Positions 710 to 47,922 of a stretch of DNA of 59,318 nucleotides are shown here, one piece after another; the first letter of the stretch is position 1; the number at the start of each line of letters is the position of its first letter. The DNA comes from a virus. The stretch covers positions 1 through 59,318 of the IMG/VR virus record IMGVR_UViG_3300023174_000187; one strand, written 5' to 3'. The position numbers were made by a program, and so were the translations under genes. The notes under the pieces are model-generated. The model was not told the DNA's origin, did not search any database, and saw only the letters and a list, made by a program, of their open reading frames with translations.

Positions 710-1420
710 ATGCCTAAAAAAATTGTTTTTACTGACACTGTAAGCGGAGGGGCTTGGGAAAAGCCTCAACCTGCGTCTCAATATTTGCCCGAGTGGTATA
801 AAAAAATGGCTACTTATACTGGAGGAGAAAAAAAACGATGGGTTTTTTCAGAACAAGATAACAATTATCACACCTATGCAACAATCAAAAAATGTTTGCC
901 AGTTTTTGATGCAATCACGGCTGGTTACATTATTACTACATATTGCGATATTGATGTCGTCATCCTTGAAACAGGAGAGCAAATGTTTTATTGGACACAG
1001 TTTGACTCAATCATGTTTCACGCCGTAGAACAAGCACCCGACCACCCCAAAGCAGGACTTTTTGCTTATCCTAAATTCAGAAATCCGTGGGCTATAAAAA
1101 CCCCCGCAGGTTATTCAGTTTTGATTATTCCGCCTATGCACCGAGATTCCCCATTTGAAATTTTTGAAGGTGTTGTTGATACAGATAAATGGAGTAGTGC
1201 AGTAAATCTTCCCTTTCAATTCAAAGACCCAAGTTGGACAGGCACAATTCCAGCGGGTACGCCAATTGCTCAGGTAATCCCATTCAAGAGAGAAGATTGG
1301 GTAAGTGAGTTAGGCAATCAAGACGATTACAACAATCACATCCACCTTCTCACAAAATTGAAGTCAGTTTGGTATGACGCTTACAAGAATTTTTGGCGGT
1401 CTCCAAAAAGTTACAAATGA
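710..1420 (+). CDS. Hypothetical phage protein
   Basis: 236 residues, rich in Trp, Tyr and Phe, no membrane segment or signal peptide. The opening KIVFTDTVSGGAWEKPQPASQYLPEWYKKM is a pattern I associate with uncharacterised proteins of marine and freshwater phages, but I cannot name a function. It is the last gene of the fibre operon and its stop overlaps the convergent sulfotransferase by 10 bases. Confidence 0.7.
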   Translation: MPKKIVFTDTVSGGAWEKPQPASQYLPEWYKKMATYTGGEKKRWVFSEQDNNYHTYATIKKCLPVFDAITAGYIITTYCDIDVVILETGEQMFYWTQFDSIMFHAVEQAPDHPKAGLFAYPKFRNPWAIKTPAGYSVLIIPPMHRDSPFEIFEGVVDTDKWSSAVNLPFQFKDPSWTGTIPAGTPIAQVIPFKREDWVSELGNQDDYNNHIHLLTKLKSVWYDAYKNFWRSPKSYK

Positions 1421-2253
1421 CCTAAATCTAAAAAGTCTAAAGCGTTTGCGTATTTGTTGATTACATAAGGCGAAAGAATCTTTGTGTAGTCCGTTTTTGA
1501 TTTATCAATTGTGTTTCGTATTTGGTGCATTGATGGAATTCCAGTAGTAGCCATTTCATCTTCTTGATAACTTTTTGTTATGTTTGATAAATCATGCGAA
1601 TACGATTCAATCTCTAAAAACTTGTATATTGAAGTAACAGTTTCCTCGGGGCTTGTTATCAAATCGTTATATTTGACAATATGAAAAATCCCCTTGTACT
1701 CAGGTTTAGTTAGATTGTAAAGGTGCATTATTTCGCAATCTAGTGAACCAGTTGGGCGCATAAGATAGTCACATCGGACATCATCTAAAGGTCTGTAAAA
1801 CTTAGAAGGAAAATCAGCGTTTGATATTCCGTTGTCAATATAATTCGTATTTGGGTATTTGTTGGCTAAAGTGACAAAAGAAGCCAAAATGTCAAGGATG
1901 CTTCTAATTGGGACAATAATTTTTGGTGTTTGATTCAATGTTTTAGCAATGTGAATTCCATTTACCCCTCCCCAACCGCGGTTGCGCTCGATGATAATTG
2001 GTTTTTCAATATCAGCGTAAAAATTGTGAGCAAATTGATTTTTTGCGTTTTCAAATCCCTTCTCACGGACTTTAGTTTTGTATGACTCTAGTTGTTTGAC
2101 ATCAAAATTCAAAAGAACCATAAGGTCTATTAGGTCGGTTTGACCGCCAGCGTAAATAGAAGGGTTTTGGTTTAGAATTGCCGAAAGCAATGTCCCGCCC
2201 GAGCGAGGTAACCCGCCCATAAAGAAAAATGTCTTATGGCTTGAATCGGTCAT
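1411..2253 (-). CDS. PAPS-dependent sulfotransferase family protein
   Basis: 280 residues. The N-terminus FFFMGGLPRSGGTLLSAIL (residues ~9-27) is the 5'-phosphosulfate-binding loop of the sulfotransferase family, followed by NQNP. These enzymes move sulfate from PAPS to a hydroxyl or amine on a sugar, protein or small molecule. It is one of only four reverse-strand genes. It is divergent, by 46 bases, from an APS-kinase-like fusion (2300-3049) that could supply PAPS, which strengthens the call. The acceptor is unknown; a fibre or host surface glycan is plausible. Confidence 0.85.
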   Translation of the reverse strand: MTDSSHKTFFFMGGLPRSGGTLLSAILNQNPSIYAGGQTDLIDLMVLLNFDVKQLESYKTKVREKGFENAKNQFAHNFYADIEKPIIIERNRGWGGVNGIHIAKTLNQTPKIIVPIRSILDILASFVTLANKYPNTNYIDNGISNADFPSKFYRPLDDVRCDYLMRPTGSLDCEIMHLYNLTKPEYKGIFHIVKYNDLITSPEETVTSIYKFLEIESYSHDLSNITKSYQEDEMATTGIPSMHQIRNTIDKSKTDYTKILSPYVINKYANALDFLDLGHL

Positions 2254-2299: not shown

Positions 2300-3049
2300 A
2301 TGATTATTCAGATTATTGGACAAGCGGGCAGTCGCAAAACTACGGTCGCCAAAATGCTTGCAAGTAGAATCAACGCAACTCATATAAATGCGGATGATGT
2401 TCGTGCAGATTTGAACAAAGATTTAGGTTTTTCAATCGAGGACAGGGTTGAAAATGCAAGACGGTTAGGTGCGCTCGCTCGCTTGTTAGAAAAGCAAGGT
2501 CAATTGGTAATTGTTGACTTCATTTGCCCTACTCAAGCGACGCGAGATGCTTTTGGTAAGCCCGACATTCAGGTATGGATGAACACCATCAAAGAAGGTC
2601 GTTTTGAGGACACCAATAAGATTTGGGAAGAACCAAAAGATTTTGATTTTCAAATCACCGAGGACATTAGTTCTAAAGAAGCCGTTGACGGAATCATCAC
2701 AAGATTTGGTTTGTTTGATTGGCAACGCCCAACTACATTGATGTTAGGCAGATACCAGCCGTGGCACGAAGGTCATCAAGCATTGATGGATGTAGCCGAT
2801 TCGCGCACAGGTCAAACCGTTGTGGCTGTTCGCAATACTCATGGAACTAGCGAAAAAGACCCGCTCTCATATGAACAGGTTGTTGAAAGTATCCACAAAA
2901 TGACATTGCGTCCAGCAATTGTGCAACTCCCTAATATCACTCATATCGTGTACGGCAGAGATGTTGGATACAAAATTGAACAAGTAGATTTGGGGGCGGA
3001 AATTCATGCCATTTCAGCAACGCAAAAAAGAAAAGAGTTGGGCATATGA
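2300..3049 (+). CDS. APS-kinase-like domain fused to a nucleotidyltransferase domain
   Basis: 249 residues. The N-terminal half (1-~110) follows APS kinase (CysC): P-loop GQAGSRKTT, then INADDVRADLNKDLGFSIED and a VIVDFICPTQATR segment like the family's substrate loop. The C-terminal half (~145-249) has GRYQPWHEGHQAL, the HxGH signature of NMN/ATP-sulfurylase-type adenylyltransferases. The arrangement resembles a compact PAPS synthase, but the second domain looks closer to NadM than to ATP sulfurylase. One oddity is Arg in place of the usual Gly before the P-loop Lys. SD AGGGGGAA precedes ATG. Confidence 0.8.
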   Translation: MIIQIIGQAGSRKTTVAKMLASRINATHINADDVRADLNKDLGFSIEDRVENARRLGALARLLEKQGQLVIVDFICPTQATRDAFGKPDIQVWMNTIKEGRFEDTNKIWEEPKDFDFQITEDISSKEAVDGIITRFGLFDWQRPTTLMLGRYQPWHEGHQALMDVADSRTGQTVVAVRNTHGTSEKDPLSYEQVVESIHKMTLRPAIVQLPNITHIVYGRDVGYKIEQVDLGAEIHAISATQKRKELGI

Positions 3050-22164: not shown

Positions 22165-22785
22165 ATTTCATTCAATTCAATTCCAACCGTCCGCGGATAT
22201 TCAGCAGGAGAAGTTACATCCGCGCTTCAAAAAGCAATTCGACGCTCCGACGACGAGCAAGCCGTATTTTGGGCGGTCGAAATGGACAGGTCAGGTTATG
22301 GTCAATATATGTGGCGACGACTTCTTATCATGGTTTCAGAAGATATCGGACTCGCCAATCCCGAACTTCCCCAACAGATTTGGAGTCTTTATTCGACTTA
22401 CAAAGAATTGCTTGCGTGGAAAAATCGCAATCACCCCGAACGCCTTCAAATTGTTCATGCTGTGCTTTTGATGGCTCGTTCGCCTAAATCTCGTATGGTT
22501 GACCATTGCACTCATGTTGCTTATACGACAAACGACACAATCCCGATTCCCGACGAAGCCTTATGTATGCACACTGGTCGCGGTCGTATGCAAGGTCGCG
22601 GACTCGACCATTGGTACAGCGACGCAGCAACGCTCGTCAACGGTCTCGATTTAGATGACAAGTGGGAAGCAAAATCCCGCGAACTCGCCTACCATCCACC
22701 AAGCGCAAAACCAGCAGAACGGTCATCCAAGAAAAATGAATTCTCCGACCCTGAGGAAGAAGAAGAAACAGTCCTTCCCTTCTAA
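22165..22785 (+). CDS. RarA/MgsA C-terminal-domain protein with an ATT start
   Basis: 206 residues. VTSALQKAIRRSDDEQAVFWAVEMD and YMWRRLLIMVSEDIGLANPEL match the C-terminal domain of RarA/MgsA, the AAA+ clamp-loader-like protein acting at stalled forks. The ATPase domain is absent. Homology extends upstream of the first ATG (22282). The only codon at proper distance from AGGGAGG is ATT at 22165, and no in-frame ATG, GTG or TTG precedes 22282. The protein may compete with or remodel host RarA. Acidic C-terminal tail (DPEEEEETVLPF). Confidence 0.75.
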   Translation: MSFNSIPTVRGYSAGEVTSALQKAIRRSDDEQAVFWAVEMDRSGYGQYMWRRLLIMVSEDIGLANPELPQQIWSLYSTYKELLAWKNRNHPERLQIVHAVLLMARSPKSRMVDHCTHVAYTTNDTIPIPDEALCMHTGRGRMQGRGLDHWYSDAATLVNGLDLDDKWEAKSRELAYHPPSAKPAERSSKKNEFSDPEEEEETVLPF

Positions 22786-23501
22786 GCGTTGCCAGTAGAA
22801 ATCAAATTGCGGGTTGCTTCCCATCCTTGATAAAAGATGGAGTCAAGGACGCTTAGGTTCGGAGTCCAGTTGTATTTGTGTTGTTTGTATGGCGCACAAG
22901 TCCAGTTTTGGGTAACTAACTCAATTCCAGCGTCAGTCCATTCTTGTAAGTCCATGTAGTTTAGAGACGGCGCACCTGTCACCATGCGGGTCGCGCCTAT
23001 CTCTTTGCATAGGTCAAGAATCCAACCCCCCTTATCCCTTTGTTTAGGTTGGAACTCGGTGTCCCGATATATGTGAGACCAAAGCGCAAGATTCTTGTGC
23101 GCCCATCTAAAAGAAGTCTCGCTTAGGTCGCCTAAAGATGTATCCTTCTCCATAATGCGAGTAACCGATTCAATGGTTTCTTCAAAAAACGGAGCGGATT
23201 TGTAACGAAATGTTATCTGAGACAAAAGTTTGCTCCTCCAATCACCTTTGCCTAGAGGCGTATCGCAAAGCGGTTGTAACTCCTTCCCTACTGATAGGGC
23301 TAACCAGTCAGGCTCTTGATTTCCACCAAGACGGATGTGCTTCATGCCCGTTACTTTCTTTGCTCCGTTTGTATCGGGCGAGGTTGCAGTAAATTGCGCC
23401 GTAGTTAGAAGAATCACCGCGTCAGATTGAGCAGCCCGCGCATAAATGTTGAGGGTTGAAAACGGTGATGGTTGGAATATCGTTACAGTTAGACCAGCCA
23501 T
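22782..23501 (-). CDS. WbqC-like protein
   Basis: 239 residues, reverse strand. TVTIFQPSPFSTLNIYARAAQSDAVILL and later CKEIGATRMVTGAPSLNYMDLQEWTDAGIELV match the WbqC family (HxPxYFP-type start varied here). The family is linked to surface polysaccharide synthesis, with possible acyl- or aminotransferase-related roles. It overlaps the PIG-L gene by 13 bases, forming a two-gene operon, and its stop shares CTAA with the convergent gene. Confidence 0.75.
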   Translation of the reverse strand: MAGLTVTIFQPSPFSTLNIYARAAQSDAVILLTTAQFTATSPDTNGAKKVTGMKHIRLGGNQEPDWLALSVGKELQPLCDTPLGKGDWRSKLLSQITFRYKSAPFFEETIESVTRIMEKDTSLGDLSETSFRWAHKNLALWSHIYRDTEFQPKQRDKGGWILDLCKEIGATRMVTGAPSLNYMDLQEWTDAGIELVTQNWTCAPYKQHKYNWTPNLSVLDSIFYQGWEATRNLISTGNA

Positions 23502-24169
23502 CGTCGAACCTCATAAGCCTCTGCTAAGGGAACGCCCGCTTGCGCACCTCTCAATACAGCCAAAGCCCTAAGTGCTTCAACAGAACGCTCAGATGGATGT
23601 GGTCGGTCTTGGGATATATGGGAACGCATTGCTTGGCACTTTCGTTCAATGTCAACTTCATCTAAAGAAACATACAAAATCGGATGGTGTTGTTCAGTCT
23701 CTAGCGTCCAGTAGTCAGAAGGTTCTTCATAGACAGCGACAATAGGCGGACGGAAATTGAATGTGCCTCCATTTGGTCGCAAAGCAGCGAGCGCAGCAGC
23801 GGAAATCGCACGATGGTCTTGATGAAACCCTCCAGGCTCAGGCATGATTACCATGTCAGGGGTAAACAGTTGAATGTGCTTCTCAATGTCAGTAATGATT
23901 TCTTTCATAGGGATAGTGTCTAAATCCCCATCGGTGTCGTTGTAAAGATATTCATAATCAATTCGACCGTCCCAGTCATCTAAGACAGCAAGACCTTGAA
24001 TCGCTTCTAGTTTGCGCATATCGTTTGGCATTGAACCGTAAATAACTAAAGCGTCAGACTTCTCTCTAGCAAGACGAGAGAGTAATCCACCCGCACCAAG
24101 AATTTCGTCGTCAGGGTGTGGAGCAAGAATCATTATCCGCTTAGGCAAAAAAGAATTATTGAAAATCAT
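23489..24169 (-). CDS. PIG-L family deacetylase
   Basis: 226 residues. MILAPHPDDEILGAGGLLSRL (~13-33) and GFHQDHRAIS (~112) are the zinc-binding PHPDDE and H-x-x-H motifs of LmbE/PIG-L N-acetylglucosamine deacetylases. Paired with WbqC on the reverse strand, it suggests glycan or nucleotide-sugar modification. In actinobacteria related enzymes act in mycothiol synthesis; context here favours glycans. Confidence 0.9.
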   Translation of the reverse strand: MIFNNSFLPKRIMILAPHPDDEILGAGGLLSRLAREKSDALVIYGSMPNDMRKLEAIQGLAVLDDWDGRIDYEYLYNDTDGDLDTIPMKEIITDIEKHIQLFTPDMVIMPEPGGFHQDHRAISAAALAALRPNGGTFNFRPPIVAVYEEPSDYWTLETEQHHPILYVSLDEVDIERKCQAMRSHISQDRPHPSERSVEALRALAVLRGAQAGVPLAEAYEVRRWLV

Positions 24170-27070: not shown

Positions 27071-27190
27071 ATGAACCGACAGGTAATTTGCGATATATGT
27101 AATAAAGAATGGTATCCAAAATCAGGGGGAATGGTTTACGAAAGTTTGAACCGACACATCAAAATAGAACACAGGGAGGAAACAAATTGA
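27071..27190 (+). CDS. C2H2-type zinc-finger microprotein
   Basis: 39 residues after a strong SD (AGGGAGG). CDIC (7-10) and HIKIEH (29-34) give C-x2-C and H-x4-H ligands in one small finger. Its end overlaps the SD and TTG start of the metallohydrolase, so the two are probably co-translated. Possibly a nucleic-acid or protein binder. Confidence 0.65.
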   Translation: MNRQVICDICNKEWYPKSGGMVYESLNRHIKIEHREETN

Positions 27191-27798
27191 GCGCAGACAA
27201 CCAGCGGAGTAAGGTATATGCCGCAGAAGGCGTAGTTCGAAATTGTAGGTCAAAGTTAGGGCGAAAAATGCTCATTCCACAAAAGACCGAGGAAATAGTC
27301 AAATCAGACGGCAGTATCGCAACGATTGCTCGAGTTCCAGCCAGCACAGCACAATGTAAGGCGTATATGGAAAAGATAGTCACTTATGAATGGTTCACTT
27401 CGAGGTGGCACATTTCTACCCCCAGTTATATCGAGGGTAATGCGCCAAATGTTGGAGATGGGCGAGCGCGACGCAAGGCTTGTTGGGATGCGAGCGTCTA
27501 TGAAATCAAACTTCCCCATTGGGCGAGAACCGAAGCCGTGATACTTCACGAGATGGCTCATTGGATAGTAGATAAAGCCACAGTGCCAAGAGAAGATGGG
27601 CGGGGCTTTTGGATTAGGCAGTATGACCCCGACCATGCAGCACATGGTAAGGAGTTCGCAGCGGTGCTTCTCGAATTAGTCCGATTGCAACTCGGAGCAG
27701 AGGCAACGAAGGCACTCAAAGCCTCCTACAAGGCGAACCGCGTCAGGAGGGATAAACAACCTCAGCCAATCCACCGAAAGGCGGTAATGGTCGCCTAG
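27187..27798 (+). CDS. TIGR04338-like HExxH metallohydrolase
   Basis: 203 residues from TTG after AGGGAGG. NQRSKVYAAEGVVRN at the start and LPHWARTEAVILHEMAHWI (HExxH at ~121-125), then HAAHGKEFAAVLLELV, match TIGR04338, a zinc metallohydrolase family largely confined to actinobacteria and their phages. The downstream HGKEF supplies a third ligand as in SprT/WLM-type proteases. Neighbour of the HslV-like gene. Confidence 0.8.
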   Translation: MSADNQRSKVYAAEGVVRNCRSKLGRKMLIPQKTEEIVKSDGSIATIARVPASTAQCKAYMEKIVTYEWFTSRWHISTPSYIEGNAPNVGDGRARRKACWDASVYEIKLPHWARTEAVILHEMAHWIVDKATVPREDGRGFWIRQYDPDHAAHGKEFAAVLLELVRLQLGAEATKALKASYKANRVRRDKQPQPIHRKAVMVA

Positions 27799-27822
27799 TC
27801 CTAAATGTGGGAGGATTCGGCT

Positions 27823-28377
27823 ATGACCACAATAGTTGCAGTCCAGTTAGATAACAAGGTGGTATTCGGCGCAGATAGTCAAGTAACAGCACCTAATGGA
27901 CGACGATTCAGTCACCCGCAGATGGTCAAAATTAGCAAGGTCGGTCAATACTTAGTTGCAGGTTCAGGTGAATGTGCGCCTTGCGATATTGCACAGCATC
28001 TTTGGATTCCACCTAAGCCACTAACCGCAGATTGGGATGACCTTTATCATTTTATGATTTCAAAAGTAGTTCCATCGTTGAAGGCTTGTTTCAAAGATAA
28101 TGAATACAAGTGGAATGAATCAGATGATGACGAAAGCAAGTTTTCATTTCTCATTGCTATTGGGGGAGAAGTTTTTGAATTAGCGGATGATATGTCTATT
28201 ACTCTTGACGAGCGTGGTTACTATGGAGTAGGAAGTGGTTCAAGTTATGCCATCGGTGCTTTGTATGCAGGAGCAACAATCGGAGAAGCACTAAAGATAG
28301 CCTCATCCAATGATGTTTATACAAGTGAGCCGTTCATGTTTCAAGAACAGGTGAAAAGAAAAAAACGCGTGGTCTAA
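27823..28377 (+). CDS. HslV/20S-proteasome beta-like Ntn hydrolase
   Basis: 184 residues from the second ATG (27823). After Met removal the N-terminus is TTIVAVQ. Relative to that Thr1, FGADSQVT places Asp at 17 as in HslV and proteasome beta subunits, and a Lys lies at 35 near the canonical Lys33. YYGVGSGSSYAIGALYAGATIGEALKIAS matches the GSG-Ser region. Length suits HslV (~175). No HslU or other unfoldase gene is visible. It may form a ring peptidase, block the host proteasome or process virion proteins. Confidence 0.8.
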   Translation: MTTIVAVQLDNKVVFGADSQVTAPNGRRFSHPQMVKISKVGQYLVAGSGECAPCDIAQHLWIPPKPLTADWDDLYHFMISKVVPSLKACFKDNEYKWNESDDDESKFSFLIAIGGEVFELADDMSITLDERGYYGVGSGSSYAIGALYAGATIGEALKIASSNDVYTSEPFMFQEQVKRKKRVV

Positions 28378-35309: not shown

Positions 35310-35531
35310 ATGGCATATGTAGTTATCGGGTCACACAAAGAAACAGGAACATTCAAGGTGGTTGGTTCGTTTTACCAAACAGCCCGAGCAGACCAAGCAG
35401 TGAAAGTATTGTCAGTTGCCGAACCTAATTGGGAATTCAGTTACAGCGATTTAGAAGATGGTGTTAGCGCATTGCAAAAAGCAAGAAAAGAAATACGACA
35501 AGAAAAGAGAAAACAAAAAAATGCTAGATAA
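35310..35531 (+). CDS. Hypothetical early protein
   Basis: 73 residues, SD AGGAGAA. AYVVIGSHKETGTFKVVGSFYQTARADQAVKVL followed by a Lys/Arg-rich tail. Overlaps the Gp88-like gene by 11 bases. Function unknown. Confidence 0.6.
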   Translation: MAYVVIGSHKETGTFKVVGSFYQTARADQAVKVLSVAEPNWEFSYSDLEDGVSALQKARKEIRQEKRKQKNAR

Positions 35532-36324
35532 GCCAAAAATTTTGCTCACCAGCAATTCCGAATTGCGTGAAGATGGAATCATGAATTGGACACTGCCAGC
35601 GTTTGCGGTCAAGTTAGATGATGGCAGAAATATAAATGTTTGCCCACAAGCAGGGGCTTGCGCAACGGTTTGTTATGCAAGAAATGGCACTTACTTGTTT
35701 CCAAATGTTATTGGTAAGCACAAGAAAAATCTTCAATTCATACTCGACGACCTTGAAGGATGGAAAGAAGCCATGTTGTTAGAGTTGAACAAAAAGAAAA
35801 TGCGACCAAGCGGAGAACCACGAAGCGTTCAAGGAGTTGACCCTGATTTGACCGACCCTTTCATAAAAGAATGGTTGGCAACAGGCGGTAAAACAGTCCG
35901 TATCCACGATTCAGGTGATTTCTTCTCAGATGAATATACGATTGCGTGGATGAAGATTGCAGAACAGGTTCCCGATGTTTTGTTTTATGCTTACACAAAG
36001 GAAGTAACCCGATTTCGCAATATAGTTGAAGGTAAAGCCCCAGTAAACTTTCGCTGGTTGTACTCAATGGGCGGAAAAGAAGATTACTTGGTCAAGTTAG
36101 AAGAAGAACGCCACGCAGATGTATTTCTCAGTTGGGATTCTATGGTCGAAGCGGGTTATGTTGACCAGTCAGCGTCAGACCTTCAAGCAATTCTTCTCCC
36201 AAGCGTCAAGATTGGTATTCCAGCAAACAACATTCCACATTTCAAAAAGAAAATGAATGGTGGCACATTCGCAAGTCTTCAAAAAGACCGTGACGATGCA
36301 AAAGCAAGAAAGTTAGAAGCGTGA
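35521..36324 (+). CDS. Gene product 88 (GP88)-family protein
   Basis: 267 residues from ATG 35521; an upstream reading overlaps the previous gene. NVCPQAGACATVCYARNGTYLF (~39-60; Cys 41, 47, 51) is the signature of the GP88 family of mycobacteriophages and relatives. VRIHDSGDFFSDEYTIAWMKIA follows, also typical. The Cys triad may hold a metal cluster. Function is not established. Its TGA lies inside the box of cassette 5. Confidence 0.8.
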   Translation: MLDKPKILLTSNSELREDGIMNWTLPAFAVKLDDGRNINVCPQAGACATVCYARNGTYLFPNVIGKHKKNLQFILDDLEGWKEAMLLELNKKKMRPSGEPRSVQGVDPDLTDPFIKEWLATGGKTVRIHDSGDFFSDEYTIAWMKIAEQVPDVLFYAYTKEVTRFRNIVEGKAPVNFRWLYSMGGKEDYLVKLEEERHADVFLSWDSMVEAGYVDQSASDLQAILLPSVKIGIPANNIPHFKKKMNGGTFASLQKDRDDAKARKLEA

Positions 36325-43073: not shown

Positions 43074-44345
43074 ATGGCAGAAGATATGAATATGCAGGAG
43101 ATTGGCTCTACTGGTCTGCGTCGTGCGGGCGGTACAGTTACAGAAGAATTTCTTCTCAATCTTCGCGGGCGACGCGGTGCTAAGACTTATCGCGAAATGT
43201 CAGACAACGACCCAGTTGTCGGTTCGATTCTTTATGCTATTGAAAAAATCATTCTTCGCCTTGAATGGCGCATTGACCCCGCTTCCGAAGATTTAGTTGA
43301 TGTTGAAGCAGCAGAATTTATTCAATCATGTATGTACGATATGTCCGATTCATGGGACTCAACAATGTCAAGTATTTTATCAATGTTGGTATTCGGATAT
43401 TCATGGCATGAAATTGTTTACAAAATTCGCGGTGGTGAATCAGATGACCCAACCAAGAAGTCAAACTTTGCAGACGGAAAAATTGGATGGCGCAAATGGG
43501 CTATCCGTGCGCAAGAAACTCATAACCAATGGGTCTTTGATGAAGATGGTGGAATCCAAGCGTTTCAACAAGTTGACCCGTGGGGTGCTGGTATGCACAC
43601 CATCCCAATTGAAAAATCTTTGTTATTTCGCACAAGCACACAGAAAAACAACCCCGAAGGTCGTTCACTTCTCCGAACCGCATACCGCCCGTGGTATTTC
43701 AAAAAGCGCATTGAAGAAATTGAAGCAATCGGCATTGAACGCGACCTTGCTGGACTTCCAGTTGCATATGTTCCGCCCGAGTATTTGTCAGCAGATGCAA
43801 CAGCGTCTCAAAAACAAGTATTGGCTTCAATTCAAGCCATCGTGCAAAATGTAAAGCGTAACGAACAAGAAGGTATCGTTTTCCCACAGGTGTATAACGA
43901 AAACGGCAACAAGATGTTTGATATGACCTTGCTATCAACAGGTGGTTCACGCCAGTTTGATACAGACAAGGTAATCAACCGCTACGACCAGCGCATTGCA
44001 ATGTCTGTGCTTTCAGACTTCATCCTTCTCGGTCATGAACGAGTAGGCTCATTTGCGCTAGGTTCGTCAAAGATTGACCTTTGGACAATGGCAGTTGACG
44101 CAATTTGTAAGTCAATCGCAGAAGTAATCAATCAACACGCAATTCCAAGATTATTGACATTGAACGGAATGAAATTGGAAAAGACACCTGAACTTATGTA
44201 CAGTGAAGTAAGCCATGTTGAACTAAGCGAAATCGCAGAATATGTATCCAAGTTGACACAGGCAGGAGCATTGAGTCCTGACGCAGCAACCGAAAAATAT
44301 CTTCGCGATTTAGCAGGTTTGCCGTCAATTGACGAAACACTGTAA
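43074..44345 (+). CDS. Portal protein
   Basis: 423 residues. TYREMSDNDPVVGSILYAIEKIILRLEWRIDPAS and SMLVFGYSWHEIVYKI are typical of DUF935/Mu gp29-type portals; LLSTGGSRQFDTDKVINRYDQRIAMSVLSDFILLG gives the crown helices. Forms the DNA gate of the head. Begins the head operon, one-base overlap with the MuF gene. Confidence 0.88.
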   Translation: MAEDMNMQEIGSTGLRRAGGTVTEEFLLNLRGRRGAKTYREMSDNDPVVGSILYAIEKIILRLEWRIDPASEDLVDVEAAEFIQSCMYDMSDSWDSTMSSILSMLVFGYSWHEIVYKIRGGESDDPTKKSNFADGKIGWRKWAIRAQETHNQWVFDEDGGIQAFQQVDPWGAGMHTIPIEKSLLFRTSTQKNNPEGRSLLRTAYRPWYFKKRIEEIEAIGIERDLAGLPVAYVPPEYLSADATASQKQVLASIQAIVQNVKRNEQEGIVFPQVYNENGNKMFDMTLLSTGGSRQFDTDKVINRYDQRIAMSVLSDFILLGHERVGSFALGSSKIDLWTMAVDAICKSIAEVINQHAIPRLLTLNGMKLEKTPELMYSEVSHVELSEIAEYVSKLTQAGALSPDAATEKYLRDLAGLPSIDETL

Positions 44346-45937
44346 TGCCTTATGTATTCCAAAAAGCCAATGACCCCTTTGCGGATAATGCGGGGCTAAC
44401 GGCAAACGAGCGTAGGTTGCTTCAAACTTATATTGATGGTTTGAAGAAATTGAATATAGCGACAAATGACCCAAAGGTTATGGCTCGTATCATGGAACAG
44501 GTAAAAGCGGGCAATCCTCTTTCCGCTGCAAACTTAGTGCCGTGGGAATCATTCACTCAGTCACTTGATGCAACTATTCCGCTTGTAGGCGCACAAATGG
44601 CAATCTCGGCTAACTTAGCAATCACACAGTTGCCAAAATACATTGATTTCAAAATGAAGTTTGATTTGACCGACCCACGGGCAATTGCTTATGCACAAGT
44701 GCGCTCAGGCGCAAGTATTAGACAAATCAACGAATACTCTCGACAAGCGGTTGCAAAAATTATTCAAGATGGTTTGCGCTCCAATCTTTCAATAGAAATG
44801 GTTGAAGCAAAAATTCAAAAAGTTGTTGGTCTTGATGGTCGCCAAGCAACAGCGTTGTCATCTTTTTACGACAGGACAATCAAAGAAGGAACAGCAAAAG
44901 GTTTATCTTTCAAAGATGCAGTTGCAAGAGCAGAAAAACTAGGAGACCAATACCGAGACAGACTTTGGAAACAACGCGCAGCCCGAATCGCCCGCACCGA
45001 AATTGCTACCGCAGCAAATGAAGGTCGTGCTTTAGCGTGGCAAGAAGCCTATAACGCAGGATTGATTCCTGACGGCTCAAAGAAAAGATGGGTAACTGCT
45101 GTTGATGAAAGAACTTGTCCTCAATGTTCGGAATTGAACGGTCAATTAGTTGATTGGCAAGGAATTTTTTCTATAGGTAAAGAAATGCCTCCTGCTCATG
45201 TCAATTGCCGATGTTCAGCCGTAATTGCTCCAACAGAACCTAGTGCAAAGCCAAGTTCACAAACAACCGAATATGAAGGTTACAAACTACAAGACCCAGT
45301 TGACAAGATAAGCACAAGTCGCGGACAAGTTGATAAAGTTGCTACCCAATTGCGTGATGCTTCAAAAGCAGTAGAGCCAAAAATTACAAAAGATATGATT
45401 GATTTGTCTAAGGCTAATGACGGCAAAATGATTGGTTTAGAAAACCGACTCAAAACACAAGCGTCATTGTCAGAAAAGATTAGTACTCGCGCAGGTAAAT
45501 CAAGTCTTGTTGATGCTACTGGACAAATTCATGATTCGGTTCGCTATACAATGAAGTTTGACGACAAAAACTATGTTCAAAGTACAAGTAATGTGATAAA
45601 CGAATTACGCGCTAAAGGTTATGTTGTAAATCCAAAAAACAATTGGTCAAAAGGTAATCCTTACTACGGAGTAAATGCTCAAGTTGTTACTCCAACAGGC
45701 GTAAAAATGGAGTTGCAGTTTCACACCAATTCATCTTTGTCGTTGAAAGCAAAGACGCACCCAATTTACGAAGAATTGCGAATCAGTAAAGACCCTGTAA
45801 TTCAAACCGCACTTCATAAAGATATGTTGGCTTTGGCTCAAAATGTAAAGTTCCCCGCAGGAGACATCAATTTATTGGGAACGCCAATACAAGCAGAAAT
45901 TGGTAAAAGTTTAGTAATGATAGGATTTCGTAAATGA
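44345..45937 (+). CDS. MuF head protein with C-terminal RelA/SpoT-like toxin domain
   Basis: 530 residues. The first ~300 are an SPP1 gp7/Mu gpF head morphogenesis protein, with RIARTEIATAANEGRALAWQEA and DERTCPQCSELNGQLVDW...HVNCRCSAVI (~257-295). After a linker, ~350-520 matches Rel/SpoT-like synthetase folds of polymorphic toxins: IHDSVRYTMKF (~395), YYGVNAQVV (~440), MELQFHTNSS (~456), KTHPIYEELR (~468). MuF-toxin fusions are known in phages; such a domain could make (p)ppGpp or related nucleotides after injection. The next gene overlaps by four bases and may be its immunity factor. Confidence 0.8.
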   Translation: MPYVFQKANDPFADNAGLTANERRLLQTYIDGLKKLNIATNDPKVMARIMEQVKAGNPLSAANLVPWESFTQSLDATIPLVGAQMAISANLAITQLPKYIDFKMKFDLTDPRAIAYAQVRSGASIRQINEYSRQAVAKIIQDGLRSNLSIEMVEAKIQKVVGLDGRQATALSSFYDRTIKEGTAKGLSFKDAVARAEKLGDQYRDRLWKQRAARIARTEIATAANEGRALAWQEAYNAGLIPDGSKKRWVTAVDERTCPQCSELNGQLVDWQGIFSIGKEMPPAHVNCRCSAVIAPTEPSAKPSSQTTEYEGYKLQDPVDKISTSRGQVDKVATQLRDASKAVEPKITKDMIDLSKANDGKMIGLENRLKTQASLSEKISTRAGKSSLVDATGQIHDSVRYTMKFDDKNYVQSTSNVINELRAKGYVVNPKNNWSKGNPYYGVNAQVVTPTGVKMELQFHTNSSLSLKAKTHPIYEELRISKDPVIQTALHKDMLALAQNVKFPAGDINLLGTPIQAEIGKSLVMIGFRK

Positions 45938-46170
45938 TTCGTTATTTTGCCGAGGCTAAAATTGATAACACAATTTACGCCATATACAGGTACAGGTATC
46001 AAAAAGAATTGATTTATGAAGAAGCATGGAATCCCAACGCTAATGCTTGGCAAAAAACAACAGATTTGACGGGCTTGTTTGTAGGAGGCGACAGTTCTTT
46101 GATGGAAGTTAGTCAATCAGATGCCCAAAATGCGTTTCCGAACGCTTTTACAGTCAACCGTAAGGGATAA
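45934..46170 (+). CDS. Small protein coupled to the MuF-toxin gene, candidate immunity
   Basis: 78 residues, ATGA overlap. IRYFAEAKIDNTIYAIYRYRYQKELIYEEAWNPNANAWQKTTDL then GDSSLMEVSQSDAQNAF. Compact alpha/beta, no motif. Translational coupling to a toxin-domain gene makes an immunity or regulatory role plausible, but similar small genes could also be head accessories. Confidence 0.55.
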   Translation: MIRYFAEAKIDNTIYAIYRYRYQKELIYEEAWNPNANAWQKTTDLTGLFVGGDSSLMEVSQSDAQNAFPNAFTVNRKG

Positions 46171-46177
46171 TGGAAAG

Positions 46178-47362
46178 ATGTCATACAAAATCAAAATGGA
46201 TGTTCCTGATGCCATCGAAAAGGCTACTGCAACAGAACTTGAACACCTCCATGCAAAGTTTCACGAAAAGTATGACTCCCCTTCATCCGATGTAGTTATC
46301 GAAAGTCACCATTGGCTCACACAAGGGCTTACTAAAATGGGTATTCGTTTACCCTCTGAACCCGATTGGGAAGCCGCTATAGTCGCGTCACAGTGGGAAA
46401 TAGAAGTAAACGGACTCGACCTCAAAGAAATGGGTTTGACATCCGACCCAATGGTCGCGGACTTAGTTGAAAAGCACCAAGATTTCATTCTTAGCGAAGT
46501 TGTTAGCAATAAGTCGCGGAAACTTGTTATCAAAATTGCGGAAAGCGAAACCTTCACCCCGCCAGCGGGAGTAATCGCGGAAGGCAAGCGGGCTTTAGAA
46601 TGGATAAAAGAAGGTCACGCAGGAGACGGATTTACAGGTGTTGGTCGCGCTCGCGCAGCACAGTTAGCAGGGGGCAAAGCGGTCTCTTTGACTACCTTGC
46701 GACGCATGAATTCATATTTCATCCGTCACGATAAAGATTCAGAAGGACAAGGTTACAAGCCCGACCAAAAGGGTTACCCAAGTCCAGGTCGCGTCGCTTG
46801 GGCAGCGTGGGGTGGAGATGCAGGTAAGTCATGGGCGGAATCAATCGTAAGTCGTGCGGATAACGCAGAAAAGTCAGCGGACTTTGATGTAATCAAACAA
46901 GTTGACGAGCGCAGATTTACTTTAGGTCCAATGTATATCCCTGACCGCCTAGATGCTCATGGTGAATGGACGGATGCTAACGAACTCCAACAAGCAGTTT
47001 GGGATTATGTAAAATCAGGAGACCGCCGTATTCGACTTCAACACAACAAAGATGTAGTTGCGGGTGAGTGGGTAGAAGTTATGACCTTCCCCTATCCACT
47101 CACAGTTCCCATGACAAAAGCAGATGGTTCAGCAGAACAAGTTACATATCCTCCGAATACCGTGTTCCTCGGAGTCCAGTGGGATGATTGGGCTTGGGAG
47201 ATGGTCAAGGCTGGAAAACTTCGCGGTTACTCCATCGGAGGAAAGGCTTCACGCTTAGAAGCAGACATTCCTCAACTTGAAGAAAAAGCCGATGGTCCAA
47301 CGGTTTCAGATGTTCATGTTGATACAATCATGGGCGGTAAACCGAGACGAAGGAAAAACTAA
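46178..47362 (+). CDS. XkdF-like putative prohead protease
   Basis: 394 residues from ATG 46178. The C-terminal ~140 residues (VDERRFTLGPMYIPDRLDAHGEWTDANELQQAVWDYVKSGDRRIRLQHNK and VFLGVQWDDWAWEMVKAGKLRGYSIGGKASRLE) match the XkdF serine peptidase family. The N-terminal half includes SHHWLTQGLTKMGIRLP and AARAAQLAGGKAVSLTTLRRMNSYF, a DUF-type domain common upstream. Probably processes the scaffold at 52394. Confidence 0.8.
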   Translation: MSYKIKMDVPDAIEKATATELEHLHAKFHEKYDSPSSDVVIESHHWLTQGLTKMGIRLPSEPDWEAAIVASQWEIEVNGLDLKEMGLTSDPMVADLVEKHQDFILSEVVSNKSRKLVIKIAESETFTPPAGVIAEGKRALEWIKEGHAGDGFTGVGRARAAQLAGGKAVSLTTLRRMNSYFIRHDKDSEGQGYKPDQKGYPSPGRVAWAAWGGDAGKSWAESIVSRADNAEKSADFDVIKQVDERRFTLGPMYIPDRLDAHGEWTDANELQQAVWDYVKSGDRRIRLQHNKDVVAGEWVEVMTFPYPLTVPMTKADGSAEQVTYPPNTVFLGVQWDDWAWEMVKAGKLRGYSIGGKASRLEADIPQLEEKADGPTVSDVHVDTIMGGKPRRRKN

Positions 47363-47922
47363 TGGCATTTGTTATGAAGAACCAATCAAAAGTTGTAAAA
47401 TCAAATGCTCCTGTTGAAAAGGTTGACCCGTTGATGGATTTTTACTACATTGACGAAGCAGACAACGAGGAAACAACCGTTGATTTGAACTCAGCGTTGC
47501 GCGAGTTGTTAGCAAATAACTTTTCTGTTTACCTACGCGCCCACGGTTATCACTGGAATGTAAAAGGAATCCACTTCGCTGCATATCATGAATTTTTCGG
47601 TGAGATTTACGAAGATTTGTATTCAGCCATTGACCCAACAGCAGAATGGTTGCGCAAGTTAGGTTACGACGCTCCATACACAATGGAGGAGTTCTTGGTT
47701 GACCGCAACATCAAAGATGCGTCTAAGCAGGTTGCACTATCAATGATGATTCAATCTTTGCTCCAAGCGATTGAGGCTCTTGAAGAATCCACAGAACATT
47801 GTTTAGAAATTGCGACAGCAGAAGATGAACAAGGGCTAATAAACTTTTTGAGCGAGCGTATCGGTATGCTCGAAAAATGGGAATGGCAATTGAATACTTC
47901 CGTAAACGAAGGATTCATCTAG
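47362..47922 (+). CDS. dps: Dps/ferritin-like protein
   Basis: 186 residues. YLRAHGYHWNVKGIHFAAYHEFFGEIYEDLYSAIDPTAEWLRKLGYDAP is the Dps core with His, His, Asp and Glu ferroxidase ligands in order. A 40-residue acidic N-terminus precedes it. Dps dodecamers store iron and shield DNA from oxidation. Its position in the head operon, one base after the protease, suggests late expression and perhaps packaging with the virion. Confidence 0.9.
   Translation: MAFVMKNQSKVVKSNAPVEKVDPLMDFYYIDEADNEETTVDLNSALRELLANNFSVYLRAHGYHWNVKGIHFAAYHEFFGEIYEDLYSAIDPTAEWLRKLGYDAPYTMEEFLVDRNIKDASKQVALSMMIQSLLQAIEALEESTEHCLEIATAEDEQGLINFLSERIGMLEKWEWQLNTSVNEGFI

What the first reader, a model, noticed from the sequence alone, without database searches (positions are those of the whole stretch)
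27823..28377. Phage-encoded HslV/proteasome-beta-like Ntn hydrolase without an unfoldase
N-terminal Met-Thr-Thr, Asp17, a near-Lys33 and the GSG-Ser region all fit an active HslV-type threonine protease, but no HslU or Mpa partner is visible. It lies beside a HExxH protease in the first early operon. It might replace, poison or borrow host degradation machinery.
Basis: partly seen in the sequence, partly recalled or inferred. Interest (0 to 1): 0.85.

Follow-up and report, generated by a model that had tools for sequence, protein, structure and literature searches.

The report
Phage-encoded proteasome-like peptidase, no unfoldase
This phage gene encodes an intact relative of the proteasome's cutting subunit with no unfolding partner; the kind was already known in phages, but hundreds of relatives sit in freshwater phages, often directly behind a histone-deacetylase-like gene that nobody has explained.

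Summary
Window 27823-28377 (+) encodes a 184-aa protein starting Met-Thr-Thr behind a good Shine-Dalgarno. It has a confident proteasome-beta fold (AF2 pLDDT 93.5). Its nearest solved structure is BPH, the betaproteobacterial proteasome homologue (TM 0.72-0.73). Thr1, Asp17 and the Lys33-equivalent are present in 187 of 187 complete relatives, and selection is strongly purifying (median dN/dS 0.08).
It is not HslV: the HslV models score 25 bits against cut-offs of 137-158. No Clp/HslU-type unfoldase was found in this phage or in 33 related phage records. Instead it has a conserved acidic pore loop (14-15 aa, net about -5), the feature that marks unfoldase-independent BPH.
Phage proteasome-like proteins without an AAA+ partner were described in 2021 (PPH, AAH, CPH; PMC8665760) and are PHROG_1040 'peptidase HslV family'. 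This is therefore a new member of a known kind.
One new lead: in 51 of 92 close relatives a histone-deacetylase-domain gene lies directly upstream, sometimes with a GP88 gene between. Function is inferred, not shown; purified BPH itself was inert in vitro.

The parts
27823..28377 (+). Phage proteasome-like (group I, BPH/AAH-like) Ntn threonine peptidase, 184 aa
   Evidence: PHROG_1040 E=4e-27; AF2 pLDDT 93.5; Foldseek PDB top BPH; T1/D17/K in 187/187 complete relatives; dN/dS 0.08 in relatives
27810..27814 (+). Shine-Dalgarno GGAGG, 8 nt before ATG 27823
   Evidence: read directly; supports the MTT start over the in-frame ATG at 27805
27826..27828 (+). codon of Thr1, the predicted nucleophile after Met removal
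   Evidence: sequence; T in 187/187 complete relatives
27874..27876 (+). codon of Asp17 (ORF residue 18)
   Evidence: D in 187/187
27928..27930 (+). codon of Lys35 (ORF residue 36), equivalent of proteasome Lys33 / BPH Lys37
   Evidence: K in 187/187; aligned to BPH Lys
28096..28140 (+). acidic pore loop DNEYKWNESDDDESK (residues 92-106, net -5) between H2 and the next strand
   Evidence: loop between helix 74-92 and strand 107-113; 14-18 aa and net -3 to -6 in the 92 close relatives, of which 90 are -5 or -4
28231..28245 (+). GSGSS motif (residues 137-141) holding the serine that contacts Thr1 in this fold
   Evidence: G139 in 188/188 and S/T/C at 138
27109..27798 (+). Neighbouring HExxH protein (TIGR04338/SprT-like); not a conserved partner
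   Evidence: TIGR04338 59.7 bits vs cut-off 90; never directly upstream in 83 relatives
35458..36324 (+). GP88 (PF17338) gene; in relatives its homologue lies directly upstream of the peptidase gene, overlapping it by 1 nt
   Evidence: PF17338 E=3.7e-47; 1-nt overlap in 17 relatives

Best explanation
The gene encodes a group I proteasome-like threonine peptidase of a tailed phage that probably infects actinobacteria. After Met removal Thr1 acts as nucleophile, helped by Asp17 and Lys35. Subunits most likely assemble into a BPH-like closed double ring with the active sites inside. A conserved acidic pore loop, rather than an AAA+ partner, controls entry, so it cleaves unfolded or specific polypeptides without ATP during infection. 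Shown here: fold, intact and invariant catalytic residues, purifying selection, absence of a phage-encoded Clp/HslU-type unfoldase, acidic loop. Inferred: peptidase activity, ring assembly, ATP independence, intracellular substrate (unknown), actinobacterial host.
For: PHROG_1040 E=4e-27. PDB phmmer best BPH 1.3e-5; with the 45-row profile, BPH 7e-12 and HslV 2e-9. AF2 pLDDT 93.5, pTM 0.89. Foldseek top hits BPH, TM 0.72-0.73. T/D/K in 187/187 complete relatives. Median dN/dS 0.08 over 340 pairs. Loop of mostly 14-15 aa with net charge -5 or -4 in 90 of 92 close relatives, as in BPH and unlike HslV (PMC8665760, PMC5777263). AAA_2: 0 of 33 related phage records over cut-off. Terminase about 50% identical over 97-100% of its length to Arthrobacter and Microbacterium phages.
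Against: Purified BPH, the closest solved structure, was inert on standard peptides and casein although epoxomicin modified Thr1 (PMC5777263), so activity cannot be assumed. Some family members are not proteases (connectase is a monomeric ligase, PMC8665760). Ring assembly was not modelled. The host may supply an unfoldase. Host assignment rests mainly on terminase relatives.
Confidence: 0.6

Rival explanations
1. It borrows a host AAA+ unfoldase (ClpX/ClpC, or the actinobacterial proteasomal ATPase Mpa/ARC) and redirects host degradation.
For: No phage unfoldase was found, and related proteases normally need one; BPH without a partner is inert.
Against: Long acidic pore loop as in unfoldase-independent BPH. 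Fuchs et al. list HslV in no Actinobacteria (Table 1), so HslU is an unlikely partner if the host is actinobacterial. No host-docking motif was tested for.
Confidence: 0.18
2. It is not a general protease: an Ntn amidohydrolase, ligase or processing enzyme with a narrow substrate, possibly acting in one pathway with the HDAC-type deacetylase and GP88.
For: HDAC domain gene directly upstream in 51 of 92 relatives with invariant catalytic residues; GP88 start-stop overlap in 17; connectase precedent (PMC8665760).
Against: H1 and H2 helices used for ring contacts are present (connectase lacks them). The window itself has no HDAC gene. The associated phages are related, so synteny is partly shared descent.
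Confidence: 0.15
3. It poisons the host proteasome or protease by co-assembling into its rings.
For: Homology to proteasome beta subunits only.
Against: Catalytic residues invariant and purifying selection, which a poison subunit would not need; low similarity to 20S_bact_beta (13.5 bits vs cut-off 191.9).
Confidence: 0.04
4. It is the prohead maturation protease.
For: It is a phage protease, and in one sub-clade lies near tail genes.
Against: The phage has its own XkdF/S78-type head maturation protease at 46121-47362 beside portal and capsid genes; gene position differs between relatives.
Confidence: 0.02

Closest known systems
AAH / group I proteasome-like homologs in phages (Fuchs, Alva and Lupas 2021, PMC8665760)
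   Same: About 180 aa, no propeptide, Thr1/Asp17/Lys, phage-encoded, no AAA+ partner. The profile matches a Rhizobium plasmid protein, AAH-like by its taxonomic range, full length at E=1.6e-23, better than BPH or HslV.
   Different: In the tree the window's freshwater-phage clade is separate from the clade holding those Rhizobium/Streptomyces proteins and T5-like phage proteins (99/96). That paper found no AAH in actinobacterial phages; this phage and several actinophage isolates carry relatives.
BPH (betaproteobacterial proteasome homologue; PDB 5ovs, 5ovt, 5ovu)
   Same: Closest solved fold (TM 0.72-0.73), long acidic pore loop, no unfoldase, Thr1 active site.
   Different: About 21-22% identity; bacterial; lysine at 37 instead of 35; tetradecamer shown for BPH, untested here.
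HslV (ClpQ)
   Same: Same fold and N-terminal MTTIV motif.
   Different: Far below HslV equivalog cut-offs (25 vs 137-158 bits); no HslU; long acidic instead of short loop.
[quoted passage not shown]
   Same: Phage-borne proteasome-like protein without unfoldase.
   Different: PPH is about 140 aa and lacks helix H2 (PMC8665760); this protein has 184 aa and both helices.
PHROG_1040 'peptidase HslV family'
   Same: Direct member by profile; the name is used in many phage records.
   Different: The name implies HslV, which the equivalog models do not support.

Membership tests
Proteasome-like (PF00227) Ntn hydrolases | sequence match to the family | tested here: met
   window 20.3 bits vs cut-off 22.4, E=4.5e-4; 42 of 45 relatives match, best 1.3e-13
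Proteasome-like (PF00227) Ntn hydrolases | fold with flanking helices H1-H4 and beta-sheet core | tested here: met
   AF2 model, Foldseek
Proteasome-like (PF00227) Ntn hydrolases | Thr1/Asp17/Lys33-equivalent triad | tested here: met
   187/187 complete relatives
HslV | HslV equivalog models TIGR03692 / NF003964 | tested here: not met
   25.0 vs 157.75 and 25.2 vs 137 bits
HslV | HslU partner | tested here: not met
   no hslU or AAA_2 in the window; AAA_2 0 of 33 relatives over cut-off
BPH | elongated acidic pore loop | tested here: met
   15 aa, net -5; conserved in relatives
BPH | closest sequence relationship to BPH | tested here: not met
   Rhizobium AAH-like protein scores higher than BPH (E 1.6e-23 vs 2.9e-11)
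BPH | heptameric double ring | not testable with these tools
   single-chain prediction only
PPH | about 140 aa, helix H2 absent | tested here: not met
   184 aa, H2 at 74-92
AAH | membership of the AAH cluster | tested here: inconclusive
   strong profile match to an AAH-like protein but a separate clade; the published AAH alignment was not at hand, so which proteins are AAH is itself inferred
CPH | membership of the CPH cluster | not tested
   no CPH sequence available here
PHROG_1040 | profile match | tested here: met
   E=4.1e-27, residues 1-178

The most novel reading that the evidence does not exclude
The phage proteasome-like peptidase, an HDAC-type deacetylase and GP88 form one functional module in freshwater (probably actinobacterial) phages, for example removing acyl marks from proteins and then degrading them to take over the host or defeat a defence that acts by acetylation.
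Probability: 0.15. Interest if true: 0.75.

Novelty: new member of a known kind. Interest (0 to 1): 0.4.

Why it matters
Phages carrying a proteasome-type chamber without an ATPase pose a direct question: what does an unfoldase-free proteasome relative do? The bacterial homologues have no known substrate, and Fuchs et al. reported no informative gene neighbourhood. The large freshwater-phage clade found here (at least 567 loci) gives such a neighbourhood, a tightly linked HDAC-domain gene, and a simple system in which deletion and Thr1-mutant phages could reveal the substrate.

Tried and rejected
A genome-contig scan found no bacterial copy at this similarity. The HExxH neighbour as a functional partner: adjacency in 0 of 83 relatives. 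T5-like phage 'putative metallopeptidase' as a parallel to the HExxH gene: no similarity (only a 9-residue chance match), and its N-terminus looks exonuclease-like. Prohead protease role: the phage has its own S78-type protease. Generic AAA (PF00004) hits exist in some distant relatives but not in the window; most lie in frames of 250-370 aa and they were not identified further. Paper searches for phage HslV or phage HDAC gave no further description.

Full report
OBSERVATION. The ORF at 27823-28377 (+) is real and 184 aa long. A GGAGG at 27810-27814 precedes ATG 27823 by 8 nt, so the protein starts MTTIVAVQ, not at the in-frame ATG 27805. Nearly all relatives have the same MTT start. Met removal, as shown by mass for BPH (PMC5777263), would expose Thr1.

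IDENTITY. PHROG_1040 'peptidase HslV family' matches over residues 1-178 at E=4e-27. Pfam Proteasome is just under its cut-off for the window protein but is matched by 42 of 45 diverse relatives. HslV equivalog models score 25 bits against cut-offs of 137-158, so HslV proper is excluded. AlphaFold2 on 45 sequences gives pLDDT 93.5. Foldseek's best PDB hits are BPH (TM 0.72-0.73), then HslV and proteasome beta; the best viral model is an uncultured phage 'HslV' protein (TM 0.88). In profile comparison a Rhizobium plasmid protein (AAH-like by taxonomy; inference) is closest (E=1.6e-23), before BPH (2.9e-11) and HslV (4e-9).

ACTIVE SITE AND SELECTION. Thr1, Asp17 and the lysine are present in all 187 complete family members collected; the one exception is a protein called from a truncated start. 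In 340 close pairs median dN/dS is 0.08, maximum 0.15. This is a maintained enzyme, not a decayed gene. Activity itself is not shown.

UNFOLDASE. The window has no AAA_2, hslU or pup_AAA match and no GxxxxGK[ST] in any ORF of 40 aa or more. In 33 related phage records AAA_2 is never over cut-off. Generic AAA hits occur in some distant relatives and were not identified further. The loop between H2 and the next strand is mostly 14-15 residues with net charge about -5 throughout the close family. BPH, which has no known unfoldase, has a long acidic loop there; HslV has a short one (PMC8665760).

HOST. The terminase is about 50% identical over 97-100% of its length to Arthrobacter and Microbacterium phage terminases; more distant peptidase relatives occur in Microbacterium and Arthrobacter phages and in Actinomycetia phage DSL-LC01. 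An actinobacterial host is likely but inferred. Fuchs et al. list no HslV in Actinobacteria (Table 1), so borrowing HslU is unlikely there.

NEIGHBOURHOOD. The HExxH gene beside it (27109-27798) is never directly upstream in 83 relatives with enough sequence, though a homologue lies elsewhere nearby in 27. Instead, 51 of 92 close relatives carry a histone-deacetylase-domain gene (PF00850 E=3.5e-57) upstream: 9-45 nt away in 32, 739 nt away in 16 where a GP88 gene overlaps the peptidase start by 1 nt (17 GP88 cases in all), and about 425 nt in 3. The HDAC residues expected for catalysis (HH, DxHH, the second Asp, Tyr) are invariant in 41 full-length copies; HDAC and peptidase distances correlate (Mantel r=0.52, 0 of 999 permutations as high). 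On the peptidase tree the window falls among HDAC-linked rows but has lost or never had the HDAC gene; HDAC linkage needs at least 4 changes and also occurs in a second clade (L091, L101). These phages are related, so shared descent explains part of the synteny. Other relatives have the gene in a lysozyme-like/HNH/SSB context or next to tail genes.

PRIOR KNOWLEDGE. Fuchs, Alva and Lupas (2021, PMC8665760) described phage-borne proteasome homologs (PPH, AAH, CPH), without AAA+ partners and without informative gene context; the text does not mention deacetylases. They found no AAH in actinobacterial phages. The present protein fails PPH's definition (about 140 aa, no H2). AAH or CPH membership cannot be settled without their alignments; the tree puts the window's clade apart from AAH-like bacterial and T5-like phage proteins (99/96).

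VERDICT. A genuine, probably active, unfoldase-free phage proteasome-like peptidase; a new member of a known kind. The linked HDAC-type gene in relatives is the part worth pursuing.

Noticed in passing
L051:6651-7574 and 50 other loci (e.g. L001, L010, L038, L101): Complete HDAC-domain gene directly upstream of the proteasome-like gene in freshwater phages; the example tested (L051) has no PHROG match and is closest to HDAC6/HDAC1 among solved structures.
   Followed up: partly
window 35458-36324; L010:414-1211: GP88 (PF17338) gene, unknown function; in 17 relatives it overlaps the peptidase start codon by 1 nt, in the window it lies 7 kb away.
   Followed up: partly
window 22782-23501 and 23489-24169 (-): WbqC-like and PIG-L deacetylase genes, overlapping head to tail on the minus strand inside a phage that is mostly plus-strand: a possible glycan-modifying pair.
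   Followed up: no
window 47362-47922: Ferritin/Dps-like protein encoded between the head protease and capsid genes.
   Followed up: no
window 1411-2253 (-) and 2300-3049 (+): Sulfotransferase next to an APS-kinase-like plus cytidylyltransferase-like fusion, suggesting a sulfation or nucleotide-activation pair.
   Followed up: no
window 44345-45937: MuF-type minor head protein with about 240 extra C-terminal residues without a Pfam match, possibly a MuF-linked effector domain.
   Followed up: no
L034:7025-7759 (Pantoea phage AAS21 gp068): Annotated 'putative metallopeptidase' but its sequence looks like a DnaQ-type exonuclease (CDIETLGT motif); probable misannotation.
   Followed up: partly
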